From: Gammaproteobacteria bacterium
GTDB taxonomy: Bacteria; Pseudomonadota; Gammaproteobacteria; Thiotrichales; Thiotrichaceae
Direction of reading: 5' to 3'
Assembly (NCBI GenBank): GCA_018822845.1
Contig: JAHJJD010000058.1
Location: 1 to 64,000 of the forward strand
Length of the DNA stretch: 64,000 nucleotides
Below are positions 3 through 37,778 of the stretch, in pieces; the first letter of the stretch is position 1; each line of letters starts with the position of its first letter. The translations under genes and the position numbers were made by a program. Under the pieces are notes generated by a model. The model did no database searches and had not been told where the DNA came from. It saw only the letters and a program-made list of their open reading frames with translations.

Positions 3-266
3 AAAGAAATTGCCACGCTGGAACCCAAACCGGGCATCCCACCGACTACAGCGCACCTGACCAGCGTGTTGCAGCAACTGCAAACCACCCCGGTCAGCAT
101 GGTGATTTATTCCGCCTACCAGAATCCGCGTTCGGCGCAGTGGCTGTCCGGCAAGGCAGGTATTCCGGCGGTCTTGCTGCCCTCCACGGTTGGCGGTACG
201 CCCGAGGCCAGCGACCTGTTCAGGCTGTTTGACGACATCATCCAGCGCCTGACCGGCGCGGTGTGA
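3..266 (+). CDS. metal ABC transporter substrate-binding protein, C-terminal part
   Basis: This is the C-terminal end (about 87 residues; the 5' end is cut by the window edge) of a periplasmic metal-binding protein of an ABC importer, ZnuA/TroA family. The frame contains LEPKPGIPPT, a stretch typical of this family ahead of the second metal-binding lobe, and a VGG..EASDLFRLFD end like that of family members. It overlaps the permease start by four bases, so the two are probably translationally coupled. No ATPase gene is visible and may lie upstream. Whether the substrate is Zn, Mn or Fe cannot be decided from this fragment. Confidence 0.8.
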   Translation, partial: KEIATLEPKPGIPPTTAHLTSVLQQLQTTPVSMVIYSAYQNPRSAQWLSGKAGIPAVLLPSTVGGTPEASDLFRLFDDIIQRLTGAV

Positions 267-1030
267 CGCGCATGGACTGGGCATTACAATTCAGCATCCT
301 CGCCCCGGCATTCGCCGCAGGGGTGCTAGTGCTGGCGACCCACATCCCGCTAGGGCGTGAAGTGCTGCGCCGGGGCATCATTTTCATTGATTTGGCAATT
401 GCACAGATCGCCGGGTTGGGGGTGATTGCGGCCCACACGCTTGGCTGGGAAGTGCACGGCTGGGAAACCCAACTCATCGCCCTGAGCGCCGCGCTGGCTG
501 GCGCATGGCTGCTGGGCTGGGCGGAAGCGCATCTGCAACAGCAACAGGAAGCCCTGATCGGCATTGTGTTCGTGCTGGCGGCAACCGGTGGCCTGCTGTT
601 ACTGGCGGATAACCCGCAGGGTGGCGAACACCTGCGCGAACTGCTGACCGGGCAGATCCTGTGGGTAAACTGGCCCGACCTGATCCCGCTGGGGGTGCTG
701 GCGGCTGCTTACTGGCTGCTGGCATGGCTGAAACCGCATTGGTTGCCACGGGTGTTTGTGCGGCAAACGTTTTACCTGCTGTTTGCGGTGCTTATTACGT
801 TTTCGGTGCAGGTAGTGGGGGTGTATCTGGTATTTGCCAGTCTGGTGATCCCTGCGTTTGCGGTGTGGCGGGATCAGCGTGCATCCCTGCGTAACGCTTT
901 CCTATTGGGCGTGCTGGGATATGGTGTGGGGATTGCTGTGTCTGCGTGGCTGGATTTGCCGACCGGGGCGAGTATTGTGTGGTTTCTGGCGATGCTGGGG
1001 CTAGGGTATAAATTAATACCTGTCCAATGA
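263..1030 (+). CDS. metal ABC transporter permease (ZnuB/ABC-3 family)
   Basis: This is the inner-membrane permease of a metal importer working with the substrate-binding protein encoded just upstream. The 255-residue protein is almost entirely hydrophobic, with about eight predicted membrane segments. It carries the N-terminal GREVLRRGIIFIDLAIAQ region typical of the ABC-3 family, where the permease contacts the ATPase. The start shown is a GTG in a GTGA overlap with the preceding stop. An ATG at 272 is an equally good start and begins MDWALQF, as I would expect for relatives. There is no clear Shine-Dalgarno for either. Family assignment is solid; the metal is unknown. Confidence 0.85.
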   Translation: MTRMDWALQFSILAPAFAAGVLVLATHIPLGREVLRRGIIFIDLAIAQIAGLGVIAAHTLGWEVHGWETQLIALSAALAGAWLLGWAEAHLQQQQEALIGIVFVLAATGGLLLLADNPQGGEHLRELLTGQILWVNWPDLIPLGVLAAAYWLLAWLKPHWLPRVFVRQTFYLLFAVLITFSVQVVGVYLVFASLVIPAFAVWRDQRASLRNAFLLGVLGYGVGIAVSAWLDLPTGASIVWFLAMLGLGYKLIPVQ

Positions 1031-7165: not shown

Positions 7166-8691
7166 ATCAGCAAAACCTTAACACAATGACCGATGCCGTT
7201 GATTTTATTCTCAGCATCCCCGTCGCTGACCGCCCCGCGCATTTGCGCCACTGTCTGGAAAGTATCCAGCAGCAACGAGCATTGCACGGCTACCCCGGCA
7301 ACATCACGGTTGTGGTTGCCGAAGACAGCCGAGAACCGCACCACATCGCCGCGCATAAAGCTTTGGTGGCGGAGTACCGTGCGAAAGGGCTGGGGGTGAT
7401 TCACTTTGATTTGCCGGAACAATACCGAGTCTTGCAAGGCATTTCCGCAGAACAGCGCCAGCATTTGGGCAGGTTATTGACCACCCAACCGGCAGAGCGC
7501 TTTTACCGCAAGGGGCAGGCAGCCAACCGCAATCTCAGCTACCTGAAAATGCTGGAGCTGACTCAAGACAAAACCCGCACCCTGTATTATCTGGTGGATA
7601 GCGACCAGTTGTTCCTGCCGGAAATCAATTATTTCCAGCATATCAACGACATTTTCCAGCAGACCGATACCCTGATGCTGACCGGCAAACTGGTGGGTGA
7701 TCCGCCGGTTTCACCATCGGTAATGGCCGCCAATTTTCTCGCTGACGTGACGGCTTTCCTGCATGAAATCGCCGGGTATGCGCCGCACAGTGAGTGCAGT
7801 TTCCACCGTGATACGCCGTTGCCGGGCGATGCCGCTTATCACGACATGGCGAAGATGTTTGGCTTTGAGCCGCAGGTTGAGTATTTCGATTATCGTTGCC
7901 CGCTGACAGGGGAGCACGATCATGCGGCTTGTCTGGAAACGTTTGCCGAGCGTTTGCAGGCGTTCTTTTTTGGTGAACACCTGACCCGCAAGACGGCGTT
8001 CCAGGATGACGGCAAACCGACGCAACTGGCTCCGGCGCGAACCATTTACCCCGGCAATTACATCGTCAATTTCGATGGGTTGAAATACATCATCCCATTT
8101 GGGCATTTACGGCTGCGCATGTCGGGGCCGACGGCGGGGCGGCTGATTCAGGCGGAAATTGGTGCGCGTTTCGCTTCTGCCAACCTGCCGATGCTGCATC
8201 GGCGCACTACGGATGATGCCAGGGATGATTTCCGCCCTGGCGTGGAACAGCAGCAGGATGCCGCCATCGACATTTCCGACGAATTCGAGCGCCAGTTTTT
8301 CGGCGACTTGATGCTGTTCTCGGTGGTGGAATGGCTGAAACATTACACGCTGGAGCAGTTGCTGGATGAAAACCTGCTGCAACAGGTGGTGGGCAAGGTG
8401 GAGGCCGACATGCTGGCGCTGTATCAGGCCAAACATGAGGCAGTGAATGGCCGTTTGCCAGAGCTGGAACAGTGGGTGAGGCAGGAACAGCACTGGTGGC
8501 ATGAGACACCAGCCATGCACAAGGTCTTACAGTTCCTGCGCAATATTGAGCGAAATTTCAGCGATCAGTCGCAGGCTTGGCAGCAAATCCAGTCAGCATC
8601 ACATCGGGAGGCGCGCAAGCGGCAGATTATGGATGCGTTGATGCAGTATCGTGGTGAACGGGCGGTTTGGGATCAATTATTCATTGCATAG
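7162..8691 (+). CDS. GT-A fold glycosyltransferase-like protein
   Basis: This 509-residue protein resembles family 2-type glycosyltransferases at its N-terminus. DFILSIPVADRP opens a Rossmann-like half and LYYLVDSDQLFLP supplies the DxD metal-nucleotide-sugar motif near residue 140. The C-terminal half is long and not recognised. The ATG at 7162 overlaps the stop of the putative nuclease (ATGA); an in-frame TTG lies 12 bases upstream. It is followed, on the other strand, by a sulfotransferase-like gene, so the pair may decorate a surface glycan. Substrates are unknown. Confidence 0.6.
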   Translation: MNQQNLNTMTDAVDFILSIPVADRPAHLRHCLESIQQQRALHGYPGNITVVVAEDSREPHHIAAHKALVAEYRAKGLGVIHFDLPEQYRVLQGISAEQRQHLGRLLTTQPAERFYRKGQAANRNLSYLKMLELTQDKTRTLYYLVDSDQLFLPEINYFQHINDIFQQTDTLMLTGKLVGDPPVSPSVMAANFLADVTAFLHEIAGYAPHSECSFHRDTPLPGDAAYHDMAKMFGFEPQVEYFDYRCPLTGEHDHAACLETFAERLQAFFFGEHLTRKTAFQDDGKPTQLAPARTIYPGNYIVNFDGLKYIIPFGHLRLRMSGPTAGRLIQAEIGARFASANLPMLHRRTTDDARDDFRPGVEQQQDAAIDISDEFERQFFGDLMLFSVVEWLKHYTLEQLLDENLLQQVVGKVEADMLALYQAKHEAVNGRLPELEQWVRQEQHWWHETPAMHKVLQFLRNIERNFSDQSQAWQQIQSASHREARKRQIMDALMQYRGERAVWDQLFIA

Positions 8692-34085: not shown

Positions 34086-35741
34086 ATGCACGACATTTTC
34101 CTCAGTTATTCGACACAAGACCGCGAGCGCTTGCAGCCGCTGTTTCAGGCATTGGAACGGCAAGGCTGGTCGGTGTTTTGGGATCACCGCACCATCGACA
34201 TCGGCGAGCACTGGAGTAAAAAGATCAACCGGGCGATACGCACTAGCAAGTGTGTAGTGGTGGTGTGGTCAAAAGCGTCTGTTGATTCTGAATGGGTGCT
34301 GGAAGAGGCAAATATCGGCAAACAACGCAATGTGTTGCTCCCGATCCAGATTGATGCGGTGGATATTCCAGTGGGTTTCACCATGCGCCAGACAGGGGAC
34401 TTTGCTCACTGGGATGGTGATGTCAACGATTTGCAGTTTATCCGGCTGGCTGAAAAAGTCGGGGAGTTGGTGGCGCAGCATGATGCTGAGCAAGCCCGGC
34501 TAGAGGCAGTAGCTGCCGCAGAAAAGACGCAGCTTGCTAATGAAAAGAAAGCTGCTGAGCAACGGGCACGCGAGAAAGCTGAACAACAACGCCGTGCAGA
34601 AGCTGAAGCACGCCAGCGCCACGAAGCCGCAGAACAGGAACGGCGGGCAAAAGAAAAAGCAGCCGCTGAACAAAAAGCGCGTGAAGCCGCCAGGCAAAAG
34701 CAATTGGCGCAGGAACGTGCCGCTGAACAAAAAGCTCGTGCAGAAGCCGAACGCCAAGCCAAAATCAACAACCCAGACTCGCCCGGCAAAAAAATCCCGT
34801 TGATTCCTGTTCTTCTGCTATCCACCGCAGTTCTGGGCGGAGGCGGTTATTACTGGCATCAAAAGGAAAATTCCCCTGTAGGAGCCAGCCCTGCTGGCGA
34901 TTCCCCCGTACAGCAAACCAAGGAAGAATCGCTTGCGGGGCAAGCTCCTACAGTAGCCCCTCAAGCATCAGTAGAAATACCGACTGCCTCTCCTGACAAG
35001 AAACCTTTTGAGCCTGAGATGGTTGCAATTGATGGCGGTACTTTCATGATGGGCTGTGACGGCAAGCGTGACGATGTAGAAGGCGGTTGTGTCGATGATG
35101 AAAAACCTGCTCACAAAGTCACTGTTAACAGTTTCCAGATGGGTAAGTATGAAGTGACGTTTGACCAATGGGACGAATGCGAGAAAGCTAAAGTTTGTCC
35201 CCATGTCGAAGATCAGGGTTGGGGGCGTGGCGACCTTCCAGTGATCAATGTCAGTTGGGATGATATTACCCGGAAATATATCCCGTGGTTGAACAAGGAA
35301 ACGGGTAAAACTTACCGACTGCCAACGGAAGCGGAATGGGAATACGCAGCACGTGGTGGTACGGATACCGCTTATCCTTGGGGCGATAAGGCGAGTCATG
35401 AATTTGCTAATTATGGCAAGGATGAATGTTGTGATGGGTTGGCTAGTGGTAAGGATAAATGGGTCTATACTTCTCCTGTAGGCAGCTTTGCAGCGAATGG
35501 TTATGGCCTTTATGACATGAACGGTAATGTGTGGGAATGGGTACAGGATCGTTGGCATAGTGATTACAAAGGTGCGCCAGTTGATGGTGGTTCTTGGGAG
35601 TCTGGCGATAGCGCCGGCCGCGTGTTGCGCGGTGGCTCGTGGAACTACGCGCCGAGGAACGTGCGTTCTGCTTACCGCAGCGACAGCGCGCCGGGCCACC
35701 GGCACAACCTCTTCGGGTTCCGCTTGGCCTCAGGTCAATAG
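34086..35741 (+). CDS. DGR target: TIR / coiled-coil / membrane-anchor / FGE-fold (C-type-lectin-like) receptor
   Basis: This 551-residue protein is the variable protein of the DGR. Residues 1-135 form a TIR domain (HDIFLSYSTQDRERL) with a probable catalytic glutamate E74 in the SEWVLEEA motif. Residues about 137-232 are a Lys/Glu/Ala/Arg/Gln-rich coiled coil. Residues 236-258 are one membrane helix. A linker then leads to a formylglycine-generating-enzyme-fold domain (308-551: GGTFMMGC, YRLPTEAEWEYAARGG, GNVWEWV). The last 43 residues are the variable repeat. The two active-site cysteines that true FGE enzymes carry after GGS are absent (Y521 and V526 there), so it should bind a ligand rather than make formylglycine. 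The predicted topology is TIR inside, variable domain in the periplasm. Confidence 0.9.
   Translation: MHDIFLSYSTQDRERLQPLFQALERQGWSVFWDHRTIDIGEHWSKKINRAIRTSKCVVVVWSKASVDSEWVLEEANIGKQRNVLLPIQIDAVDIPVGFTMRQTGDFAHWDGDVNDLQFIRLAEKVGELVAQHDAEQARLEAVAAAEKTQLANEKKAAEQRAREKAEQQRRAEAEARQRHEAAEQERRAKEKAAAEQKAREAARQKQLAQERAAEQKARAEAERQAKINNPDSPGKKIPLIPVLLLSTAVLGGGGYYWHQKENSPVGASPAGDSPVQQTKEESLAGQAPTVAPQASVEIPTASPDKKPFEPEMVAIDGGTFMMGCDGKRDDVEGGCVDDEKPAHKVTVNSFQMGKYEVTFDQWDECEKAKVCPHVEDQGWGRGDLPVINVSWDDITRKYIPWLNKETGKTYRLPTEAEWEYAARGGTDTAYPWGDKASHEFANYGKDECCDGLASGKDKWVYTSPVGSFAANGYGLYDMNGNVWEWVQDRWHSDYKGAPVDGGSWESGDSAGRVLRGGSWNYAPRNVRSAYRSDSAPGHRHNLFGFRLASGQ
34876..34953. repeat. inverted pair of REP-like 27-mers inside the TIR-FGE coding sequence
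   Basis: Copy A (34876-34902) begins CTGTAGGAGC and ends GGCGATT. Copy B (34927-34953) is the same element inverted. A third copy is at 58740-58766. Each folds as a hairpin. The pair encodes part of the linker between membrane helix and FGE domain (SPAGDSPV and SLAGQAPT), so the repeat doublet has inserted in frame without breaking the gene. Confidence 0.8.
35610..35738 (+). repeat. DGR variable repeat (VR)
   Basis: This 129-bp segment encodes residues 509-551 of the receptor and aligns without gaps to the template repeat at 37467-37595. There are 17 mismatches. Sixteen are at positions where the template has A (to G, C or T); the last, G35734 against C37591, lies in the 3' invariant part expected to be the IMH. 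Thirteen amino acids differ as a result, clustered at 511, 521-522, 530-538, 540 and 542-543. The stop codon follows immediately. Confidence 0.96.
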
Positions 35742-35950
35742 GCCGCTACTCAGGACGGCGGGATGCCGCAGGCTGCCGGAGGCAGCTCTTGTGGCGCGGC
35801 CAGCGTAGCCAAATGCAGGGGCGTTGTCGGAGCAGCCCCGGCATTTGGTGGAGCAGGACGTGCCACAGCGGGGGTGCAGGGGGCTGCAAGCCCCTTGCTT
35901 CGCGTTTTTTGTTGTTGATAAGCGTGTTTTTTCCACGGAAGGGAAAAGCT
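35742..35950. other. structured non-coding stretch between VR gene and HRDC gene
   Basis: This 209-base gap contains no supported gene but three strong hairpins. At 35766-35795 a GCTGCC-GGA-GGCAGC stem is extended by GCC/GGC pairs. At 35811-35846 the arms are AAATGC-a-GGGGC and GCCCC-g-GCATTT. Near 35877-35895 lies GGGGCT-GC-AAGCCCC. A hairpin or cruciform just downstream of the IMH is a known aid to retrohoming in other DGRs, and the first hairpin begins 28 bases after the VR. The others may be terminators or repeats. Confidence 0.6.
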
Positions 35951-36460
35951 ATGAAACTGAAATTTTTCAGTGTGGATGCGCTGGAGCCTGACGATGATCA
36001 ATCCGTGGTCGATAGTTTCTGTACACGCCACCGTCTGATTTCCATAGACAAACGTTTTGTTGAACGTGGCGATTATTGTTACTGGTCGGTCTGTGTCACC
36101 TATCTGGAGCCATCTTCTTCACCTGCCAAACCCACCAAAGCCGTCGACAAGAAAGGGCGGGTTGATTACCGCGAAGCTCTCCCGCCGGAAGATTTTGCCC
36201 GCTATTCGCGCTTGCGCGATTTACGTCGTGAACTGGCCGAAGCAGAGGGAGTGCCCGTTTATACGGTATTCTCCAACGCGCAACTGGCCAAAATGGTGAC
36301 AGAACGGGTTAACACTGCTGTTGCTTTGGCAAAGATTGACGGGGTAGGTGACGCCAAGCTGGAAAAGTATGGCGCACAGTTTTTGCAGTTGCTGAAAGCC
36401 GAATTCCCACCGGCCAGTAAACCAGTGGATAAAGGCGACAATGAAACGCAGAAAGATTGA
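35951..36460 (+). CDS. HRDC-domain DGR accessory protein
   Basis: This 169-residue protein has an N-terminal part (MKLKFFSVDALEPDDD..., RGDYCYWSVCVTYLE) and a C-terminal HRDC domain. The HRDC domain runs from about 75 to 150: RYSRLRDLRRELAEAEGVP, VFSNAQLAKM, and KIDGVGDAKLEKYG. HRDC proteins replace the usual Avd accessory in some DGRs and are thought to bind nucleic acid for the reverse transcriptase. The start at 35951 has AAGGGA ahead. It overlaps the reverse transcriptase gene by 20 bases. No avd gene is seen. Confidence 0.88.
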   Translation: MKLKFFSVDALEPDDDQSVVDSFCTRHRLISIDKRFVERGDYCYWSVCVTYLEPSSSPAKPTKAVDKKGRVDYREALPPEDFARYSRLRDLRRELAEAEGVPVYTVFSNAQLAKMVTERVNTAVALAKIDGVGDAKLEKYGAQFLQLLKAEFPPASKPVDKGDNETQKD

Positions 36461-37448
36461 CCTTGCAGACATCACAGACTGGCATAATCTCCATCTGGCT
36501 GTATGGAAAGCCGCACGCGGTAAGCGCCATCGCCCCGATGTCATCCGTTTTACCAACCGTCTGGACTACAATCTCGGTAAACTGGCAGATGACATTATGC
36601 AGGCCAAAGTCCCTTATGGCCGTTACCGCGAGTTTCACATCCACGACCCCAAAGAACGCCTGATCCATGCTGCCTGCTTTGAAGACCGGGTGTTGCACCA
36701 CGCCATCATGAATCTGGCCGAGCCAGTGTTTGAACGCACACTGGTTCCGACCACCTACGCTTGTCGCCCAGAGAAGGGGGTACACAAAGCCATCCAGCAG
36801 GTACAGGCTAACCTGCGGCGCTATCCGTGGTATGTGAAAGTGGATATTTCCGGTTATTTTCCCAACATTGACCATCATGTTCTTTACAGGCTGTTACAGC
36901 ACCGTTTCAAGGGGGATGATTTCCTCTACCTGTTGTGGCGGATCATTGATTCTTGTCCTGCCCAACCGGGAAAAGGTTTACCGATTGGCTCCCTGACTTC
37001 GCAGCATTTCGCCAATTATTATCTGGATGGCGCAGACCGTTTCCTGCTGGAGTTTTGTAAGGTATGGGGGCATGTCCGCTATATGGATGATACGCTGTTC
37101 TGCTGCGACAGTCGGGAGGCAGCGCAAGTCAAGCTGGTGGAACTACGTGACTGGCTGCGCGACCAGCGCCAGTTACAGGTCAAACCTGATCCACAAATCA
37201 ACTGTAGCAGCCGGGGAGTCAGTTATTGTGGCTATCGGGTTTTGCCCGGAGCGGTTTTGCTTAGCCGTCGCAAACGCCAGCGTTACCAGCAGTTGCGCCT
37301 GCAATGGGAGCAAGCATGGCTGGATGGAGAAATTACCGAACTGGAATTGCAGCAGGTTTACCAGTCTGTCCATGCCATCACGCTCCATGCTGACAGCGAT
37401 GAATGGCGCAGGCAAAACTTGCGTTTGTACCCGTCACCGGCTATGTAA
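36441..37448 (+). CDS. DGR reverse transcriptase
   Basis: This 335-residue reverse transcriptase should copy the template RNA with errors at adenines and pass the cDNA to the VR. The catalytic YMDD is at 214-217. Motif 4 reads GLPIGSLTSQHFANYYL (near 180-195), with the GxxxSQ form typical of DGR enzymes rather than the QGxxxSP form of group II introns. FERTLVPTTYACRPEKGVHKA and YVKVDISGYFPNIDH are the other RT motifs. No nuclease or maturase domain is present, as expected. It overlaps the HRDC gene, and the template starts 18 bases after its stop. Confidence 0.95.
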   Translation: MKRRKIDLADITDWHNLHLAVWKAARGKRHRPDVIRFTNRLDYNLGKLADDIMQAKVPYGRYREFHIHDPKERLIHAACFEDRVLHHAIMNLAEPVFERTLVPTTYACRPEKGVHKAIQQVQANLRRYPWYVKVDISGYFPNIDHHVLYRLLQHRFKGDDFLYLLWRIIDSCPAQPGKGLPIGSLTSQHFANYYLDGADRFLLEFCKVWGHVRYMDDTLFCCDSREAAQVKLVELRDWLRDQRQLQVKPDPQINCSSRGVSYCGYRVLPGAVLLSRRKRQRYQQLRLQWEQAWLDGEITELELQQVYQSVHAITLHADSDEWRRQNLRLYPSPAM

Positions 37449-37778
37449 ATGAGTGGGTGGTAGTCAAGCGCCAACCGCGTGTTGCGCGGTGGCTCGTGGA
37501 ACAACACGCCAAGGAACGTGCGTTCTGCTAACCGCAACAACAACACGCCGGACAACCGGAACAACAACATCGGGTTCCGCTTGGCCTCAGCTCAAACGTC
37601 AGCAGTAGCGGCAGTTGACCAGACTGCCATCCTGTCCTTGATGCGTTTGCATCATGGCGAAAAGCCAATGCCCCCCGGTATGTTAGTAGGGAGACTGCCG
37701 AACATTTGCCGGTGGGGTTTCTTCCTGAATTTCATACTATTATCAGACTCTAATTCAGGTCTATTTTATGGTGGGAAT
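37449..37778. other. 330-base region holding the TR and the antitoxin leader
   Basis: Apart from the template repeat (37467-37595) I see no gene. The remaining 180 bases run up to the antitoxin start and become AT-rich after about 37720 (TTCATACTATTATCAGACTC), where the antitoxin promoter probably lies. An open frame joins the end of the TR to the antitoxin but has no sign of being translated. Confidence 0.5.
37467..37595 (+). repeat. DGR template repeat (TR)
   Basis: This non-coding 129-bp master copy corresponds to the VR at 35610-35738 (offset 1857). Read in the VR frame it is unusually rich in AAC codons, the signature design of DGR templates, because A-mutagenesis of AAC reaches many residues without stop codons. 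It holds 34 adenines, of which 16 are changed in the current VR. Its 3' end carries C37591 where the VR has G, the expected IMH*/IMH difference. Confidence 0.96.

What the first reader, a model, noticed from the sequence alone, without database searches (positions are those of the whole stretch)
34086..37595. Complete diversity-generating retroelement with an adenine-specific mutation record
The sequence shows two 129-bp repeats, VR at 35610-35738 and TR at 37467-37595, aligned without gaps. They differ at 17 positions, and 16 of these are A in the TR (to G, T or C). The remaining change (G35734/C37591) lies at the 3' end, where IMH and IMH* normally differ. Between the repeats are a reverse transcriptase with YMDD and a DGR-type SQ motif, and an HRDC accessory gene. 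Adenine-targeted mutagenesis is the defining trait of DGRs. The presence of all parts, with thirteen altered amino acids in the present VR, indicates that the system has been active.
Basis: partly seen in the sequence, partly recalled or inferred. Interest (0 to 1): 0.88.

Follow-up and report, generated by a model that had tools for sequence, protein, structure and literature searches.

The report
Bacterial receptor rewritten by mutating retroelement
A filamentous sulfur bacterium (genus Thiothrix) carries a genuine diversity-generating retroelement that rewrites the tip of a membrane protein with a TIR (immune-signalling) domain, and the same genome has two such machines and at least six differently wired target proteins, much as already described for other multicellular bacteria.

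Summary
VR 35610-35738 and TR 37467-37595 differ at 17 of 129 positions, 16 of them TR adenines (P = 3e-10); the other is the IMH/IMH* base. The cassette is target (TIR / charged linker / predicted TM / FGE C-type-lectin domain with the VR at its C-terminus), HRDC accessory, DGR-type RT (38% identical to BPP-1 brt), TR. The DGR call is right but incomplete. (1) The genome, a Thiothrix, has two complete RT-TR cassettes and six VRs that match TR1 or TR2 at nearly all non-adenine bases, in proteins with different effectors: TIR, caspase, two kinases, CHAT, TIR-nSTAND1; three lie away from any RT. (2) A ~140-nt RNA follows the TR (37588-37728), with strong covariation, kept beside HRDC-type DGRs of Proteobacteria and an Acidobacteria MAG, absent from Rfam: the probable counterpart of the BPP-1 spacer RNA. 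(3) A GC-rich hairpin with a constant GGA triloop and varying stem follows many VRs, inside a block found only after VRs: the probable target-site cruciform. Present activity is not shown. New member of a known kind, closest to the DGRs of Thiohalocapsa PB-PSB1; RNA and hairpin are the newest parts.

The parts
34086..35741 (+). Target gene, 551 aa: TIR domain (aa 4-109), charged linker, predicted TM (aa 237-255), FGE-sulfatase / C-type-lectin domain (aa 310-548)
   Evidence: Pfam TIR_2 7e-23, FGE-sulfatase 7e-58; hydropathy; PDB relatives include the DGR variable protein TvpA 2y3c
35610..35738 (+). Variable repeat (VR), last 43 codons of the target gene, ends at the stop codon
35734..35734 (+). 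IMH* base (G; C in the TR), shared by all six VRs of the genome
35772..35786 (+). GC-rich hairpin GCTGCC[GGA]GGCAGC, probable target-site cruciform
   Evidence: compensatory stem changes in paralogues
35742..35935 (+). Non-coding block found only downstream of VRs in this genome; contains a 78-nt long hairpin at 35790-35867
   Evidence: DNA fold z = -4.3; six copies, all after VRs; more conserved than the FGE coding sequence next to it
35951..36460 (+). HRDC-domain accessory gene (169 aa), overlaps the RT start
   Evidence: Pfam HRDC 1e-18
36441..37448 (+). DGR reverse transcriptase (335 aa)
   Evidence: RVT_1 5e-18; best PDB relative 8ub7 2e-48; 37.9% identity to BPP-1 brt
37467..37595 (+). 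Template repeat (TR1)
37588..37728 (+). Conserved structured RNA directly after the TR, proposed RT/HRDC-binding and priming domain of the DGR RNA (Sp-like)
   Evidence: covariation; model hit 111 bits; no Rfam family

Best explanation
A chromosomal, HRDC-type diversity-generating retroelement. A transcript across TR and the structured RNA behind it is bound by the RT (with the HRDC protein), primed near the TR 3' end and copied with errors opposite adenines. The cDNA replaces the VR at the 3' end of FGE-domain genes, guided by homology, the IMH* base and a hairpin just downstream of the VR. The product is a receptor repertoire: one diversified FGE ligand-binding domain fused to different effectors. 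In the window protein the FGE domain is predicted outside the membrane and a TIR domain with a glutamate at the catalytic position inside, so that ligand binding would trigger TIR signalling, most likely as a phage or competitor sensor of a filamentous bacterium. Shown by sequence: cassette parts, adenine-specific changes, six targets, covarying RNA, hairpins. Inferred: RNA binding and priming, hairpin use, trans-writing, topology, immune role.
For: 16/17 changes at TR-A, P 3e-10. Five more VRs with 13-23 adenine changes; against the better-matching TR four of them have only 1-2 non-A changes, and more only in the C121 VR, which carries a partial duplication; FGE paralogues outside this system show 22-32 non-A changes. 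Same pattern in related genomes: 12 A/0 other, 12/1, 15/1, 19/1. RT closest in PDB to 8ub7 and 38% identical to BPP-1 brt. HRDC-RT-TR order kept in relatives. RNA: 123 double-change cells against 47 shuffled and 22-38 slid; 84 against 30 in 11 sequences not used to build the model. GGA-loop hairpin after 14 of 31 VRs against 0.47% of control windows. Effector domains.
Against: No population data, so no direct sign that VRs change now. Two further DGR loci in the genome are decayed, so loss of function is common. C3 and C76 VRs have triloops other than GGA at the main hairpin. Helix 1 of the RNA is weak in the window's own lineage (47-57% of cells paired overall). Ligand and immune function are untested.
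Confidence: 0.87

Rival explanations
1. A fossil DGR: the VRs were diversified in the past, the machinery is intact by chance or recently silenced, and the target is now a fixed receptor.
For: Decayed cassettes in the same genome (C76 with RT deleted, C16 with RT remnants) and in relatives.
Against: Two full-length RT genes 89% identical with all motifs; none of the 34 TR1 adenines is altered in the G008 TR; non-A VR positions are still nearly identical to the TR.
Confidence: 0.15
2. The repeats are ordinary paralogous FGE gene ends that diverged by point mutation or gene conversion.
For: FGE genes are abundant in the genome.
Against: FGE paralogues outside the system differ at all bases, 22-32 non-A changes; the 16/17 adenine bias has P 3e-10; the TR lies outside any such gene, after the RT.
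Confidence: 0.01
3. The DGR is real but the targets serve cell-cell recognition or attachment within filaments, not defence.
For: C-type-lectin folds also serve attachment in other DGRs (established knowledge, e.g. BPP-1 Mtd); kinase-FGE targets need not kill the cell.
Against: TIR, caspase, CHAT and TIR-nSTAND1 effectors are typical of conflict systems (PMC10907252, PMC7159879).
Confidence: 0.3
4. Each remote VR was written by its own cassette that was later lost, rather than in trans by the two existing RTs.
For: C76 and C16 show cassettes being lost.
Against: C29, C9, C121 and C3 carry the TR2-specific T at position 87; C39 and C76 carry the TR1-specific C.
Confidence: 0.3

Closest known systems
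DGRs of Thiohalocapsa sp. [quoted passage not shown] 2024, PMC10907252)
   Same: Several DGR loci per genome, complete plus degenerate copies, apparent trans-writing, C-type-lectin/FGE sensors fused to TIR, CHAT, kinase or NACHT/nSTAND1 domains, multicellular host.
   Different: Different genus; single genome, no population data; a TIR-TM-FGE receptor and a caspase-FGE target; the RNA and hairpin elements are described here.
BPP-1 DGR of Bordetella phage
   Same: RT homologue (38% identity), TR/VR adenine bias, IMH difference, hairpin downstream of VR, structured RNA next to the TR 3' end.
   Different: Accessory is Avd, not HRDC; TR lies before the RT; the hairpin has a 4-nt GRNA loop (PMC3240598) instead of GGA.
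Treponema denticola DGR (PMC4891356)
   Same: HRDC accessory overlapping the RT gene, remote targets, FGE-like variable protein TvpA.
   Different: Gene order (accessory gene between TR and RT) and target domains; TvpA has no TIR domain as far as known.
Ternary and NTPase conflict systems with DGRs (Kaur et al. 2020, PMC7159879)
   Same: DGR-diversified FGE domains linked to immune-type effectors in multicellular prokaryotes.
   Different: No MoxR-vWA-VMAP set was recognised directly beside the window cassette; the target carries sensor and effector in one chain.

Membership tests
Diversity-generating retroelement | TR/VR pair with substitutions confined to TR adenines | tested here: met
   16 of 17, P 3e-10; replicated in other VRs
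Diversity-generating retroelement | RT of the DGR kind (SQ in motif 4, related to BPP-1 brt) | tested here: met
   GLPIGSLTSQ and YMDD; best PDB relative 8ub7; BPP-1 brt 37.9%; far below NCBIfam cut-offs for group II, retron and DRT RTs. No RT tree was built.
Diversity-generating retroelement | IMH/IMH* difference at the repeat 3' end | tested here: met
   C in both TRs, G in all six VRs
Diversity-generating retroelement | Accessory protein beside the RT | tested here: met
   HRDC, also in 14 relatives
Diversity-generating retroelement | VR in a C-type-lectin/FGE or other variable-protein fold | tested here: met
   FGE-sulfatase Pfam hits in all targets; by sequence, the structure model was too poor
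Diversity-generating retroelement | Hairpin/cruciform downstream of VR | tested here: met
   (sequence only, not structure probing)
Diversity-generating retroelement | RT-dependent mutagenic homing | not testable with these tools
   needs culture or reads
Avd-type (BPP-1-like) DGR | Avd accessory and TR between avd and RT | tested here: not met
   HRDC instead of Avd; TR after RT
Clade 5 DGRs of multicellular bacteria (Dore et al. 2024) | RT inside Roux clade 5 | not tested
   no reference RT set was at hand; close RTs in Thiothrix, Nitrosomonas, Methylococcaceae and Desulfobulbaceae are consistent
TIR NADase effector | TIR domain with catalytic-position glutamate and NADase activity | tested here: inconclusive
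   Pfam TIR and a WxxxE stretch (SEWVLEE) by reading; activity untested

The most novel reading that the evidence does not exclude
HRDC-type DGRs use their own class of structured RNA (about 140 nt after the TR, matching no Rfam family) and a portable target-site module (VR plus a GGA-loop hairpin block). In Thiothrix this module has been grafted onto TIR, caspase, kinase, CHAT and STAND effectors, giving a combinatorial hypermutated receptor repertoire served in trans by two RTs.
Probability: 0.6. Interest if true: 0.68.

Novelty: new member of a known kind. Interest (0 to 1): 0.52.

Why it matters
It adds a filamentous, partly cultivable genus to the few where DGRs diversify immune-type receptors, with one TM-anchored TIR receptor that resembles a Toll-like receptor in its parts though not in orientation or descent. 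The covarying RNA and the GGA-loop hairpin give concrete, testable parts for HRDC-type DGRs; the experimental DGR system in the papers read here (BPP-1) is Avd-type. Thiothrix fructosivorans and T. eikelboomii carry relatives of the cassette, so activity and function could be tested in culture.

Tried and rejected
AlphaFold model of the FGE domain with 19 sequences: mean pLDDT 65 and below 50 over the VR, so not used. A single-sequence RT query found no genome contigs; the alignment query did. Rfam: only chance matches below threshold. Plasmid near search: no match. In one search the '250..450' column is an artefact of free end gaps and is disregarded. Wu et al. 2018 (PMC5758913) was not held, so prior mention of the RNA or hairpin there could not be excluded. 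Group II intron, retron and DRT readings of the RT were rejected on scores and the TR/VR pair.

Full report
Observation. They differ at 17 positions, 16 of them adenines of the TR. The chance of at least this concentration on 34 adenines is 3e-10. The seventeenth is C in the TR and G in the VR at repeat position 125, the usual place of the IMH/IMH* difference. The TR is built for safe variation: 31 of 34 adenines are at codon positions 1 or 2 and no TR codon can become a stop.

Cassette. The target gene 34086-35741 has an N-terminal TIR domain, a charged linker, one predicted transmembrane segment and a C-terminal FGE-sulfatase domain that ends with the VR. Then follow an HRDC gene (35951-36460), an overlapping RT gene (36441-37448) and the TR. 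The RT has the motifs GLPIGSLTSQ and YMDD, is nearest in the PDB to entry 8ub7, which I know as the BPP-1 bRT complex, and is 37.9% identical to BPP-1 brt. The FGE domain is related to PvdO, formylglycine-generating enzymes and the Treponema DGR protein TvpA (2y3c).

Organism. The window lies in a 4.0-Mb, 130-contig genome. The host is therefore taken to be a Thiothrix; Thiothrix species are filamentous (my knowledge).

Genome-wide repertoire. A second complete HRDC-RT cassette lies on C3; its TR continues on C20 through a 125-bp exact overlap of the contig ends. C76 ends in a third copy in which most of HRDC and RT are missing before the TR; it also overlaps C20, by 119 bp, so an assembly junction cannot be excluded. 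C16 holds an older decayed locus with RT fragments, a TR-like repeat and two VRs that share its non-adenine differences. Six VRs match TR1 or TR2: C39 (window), C3, C76, C29, C9 and C121. Measured against the better-matching TR, C39, C29, C9, C76 and C3 differ at 16, 17, 18, 20 and 22 adenines and at only 1 or 2 other positions. C121 carries a 39-bp in-frame partial duplication of the VR and is less clean. FGE genes of the same genome outside this system (C29_8398, C29_13k, C70, C59) show 22-32 non-adenine differences in the same comparison. The target proteins are TIR-TM-FGE (C39), caspase-FGE (C3), kinase-FGE (C29, C76), CHAT-FGE (C121) and TIR-nSTAND1-FGE with an in-frame stop between TIR and nSTAND1 (C9). 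At repeat position 87 the TRs differ: C39 and C76 carry the TR1 base; C3, C29, C9 and C121 the TR2 base. This suggests that TR2 has written three remote genes in trans, although loss of local cassettes is an alternative.

Relatives. In the genus, 10 of 16 genomes match the RT at E 1e-10 or better, some only through other RT types; full-length relatives at 52-86% identity are in G008, G012, G004 and G010. VRs beside relatives of the TR show 12 adenine and 0 other changes (G012), 12 and 1 (G004), 15 and 1 and 19 and 1 (G010). The TR of G008 has no change at any of the 34 adenines of TR1, as expected if the TR is conserved while VRs vary. TIR-FGE genes about 57% identical to the target occur without RT in the stretches read from G005 and G006.

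RNA element. About 140 nt directly after the TR are conserved among cassettes and then the similarity stops. Seventeen sequences from Thiothrix, Methylococcaceae, Desulfobulbaceae, Nitrosomonas, an endosymbiont and an Acidobacteria MAG share a five-helix fold. For the named structure 123 cells change on both sides and keep pairing, against 47 in shuffles and 22-38 when partners are slid. A covariance model finds the element in 13 of 63 genomes of the family and, among 397 other genomes drawn from the phylum, in five, all of one genus: three have a DGR RT (whole or part) beside it, one a TR-like repeat at a contig end, and one an FGE gene that runs straight into it. In 11 sequences not used for the model the covariation holds (84 against 30), with the caveat that this alignment was fitted to the model. 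Rfam has no family for it. In BPP-1 a spacer RNA 3' of the TR folds, recruits the RT-Avd complex and primes cDNA synthesis (PMC12875486); the element here has the same position relative to the TR and probably the same role. That role is inferred. Some relatives keep the RNA without a matching RT (G006, G053, G060), which I read as decayed cassettes.

Target site. After the VR stop lies a GC-rich hairpin, GCTGCC-GGA-GGCAGC at 35772-35786. Across 31 VR ends, 14 have a stem of five or more pairs with the loop GGA within 75 bp; 16 of the 20 such triloop hairpins have GGA; control windows of the same loci have it at 0.47%. The VR ends are related to each other, so the binomial P there (7e-25) overstates independence. 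Stems vary while the loop stays. BPP-1 needs a hairpin/cruciform downstream of VR whose stem sequence is free and whose loop (GRNA) is fixed (PMC3240598). In this genome the block 35742-35935 occurs at six places, all after VRs, and its first 140 bp are 85-95% identical between targets, against 62-83% in the neighbouring FGE coding sequence. It contains a long hairpin; the single-strand DNA fold of the region has a z-score of -4.3. VR plus block looks like a portable homing address.

Function. The same diversified FGE sensor joined to TIR, caspase, CHAT, kinase and STAND parts fits the antigen-sensor proposal of Dore et al. (PMC10907252) and the conflict systems of Kaur et al. (PMC7159879). 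In the window protein the linker and TM would place TIR inside and FGE outside; this rests on hydropathy and the charged stretch before the segment. Defence against phage or competitors is the most likely use, but recognition within the filament cannot be excluded.

Novelty. All main parts are known: DGR, HRDC accessory, FGE targets, TIR effectors, several loci per genome with trans-writing. It is a new member of a known kind. What I did not find described in the papers available here is the covarying RNA of HRDC-type DGRs, the GGA-loop target hairpin and the VR-linked block. A search for Thiothrix together with DGR in the paper library gave none, and one important survey (Wu et al. 2018) was not held.

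Noticed in passing
L078:5052-5762 and L107 (G008 second locus); also L109:744-1645 (G080): An FGE target gene whose VR runs directly into the TR-side RNA, with no RT or HRDC between: it looks like recombination between VR and TR that deleted the cassette.
   Followed up: partly
L015:7250-7417 (C121): The VR of the CHAT-FGE gene carries a 39-bp in-frame partial duplication at its 5' end, as if the cDNA 5' end had integrated at a wrong place.
   Followed up: partly
L016:6960-9718 (C16): A third, older DGR locus: RT fragments with an internal deletion, a TR-like repeat at 7260-7364 and two VRs that share its non-adenine differences.
   Followed up: partly
L017:6364-7413 (C70): A 1313-aa protein with two FGE domains whose ends resemble two VRs of one unknown template; no TR for them was looked for.
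   Followed up: no
L084 (Thiothrix fructosivorans plasmid pTfr446): A related DGR with two targets lies on a 446-kb plasmid, so these cassettes can travel.
   Followed up: no
window:37779-38027: Gene for a Phd/YefM-like antitoxin (weak Pfam match, YafN-like) after the TR; no toxin gene was recognised directly downstream.
   Followed up: no
L013:8019-10814 (C9): TIR-nSTAND1-FGE reading frame interrupted by one in-frame stop between TIR and nSTAND1; either two proteins or a broken gene.
   Followed up: no
L103, L102, L105 (G006, G060, G053): The TR-side RNA is retained without an RT beside it, between FGE genes.
   Followed up: partly
Alignment A2, helices 1 and 5 loops: Hairpin loops of the RNA in several lineages contain GGA (UGGAU, GUGGAU), the same triplet as the loop of the DNA hairpin after VRs; whether this is chance was not tested.
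   Followed up: no
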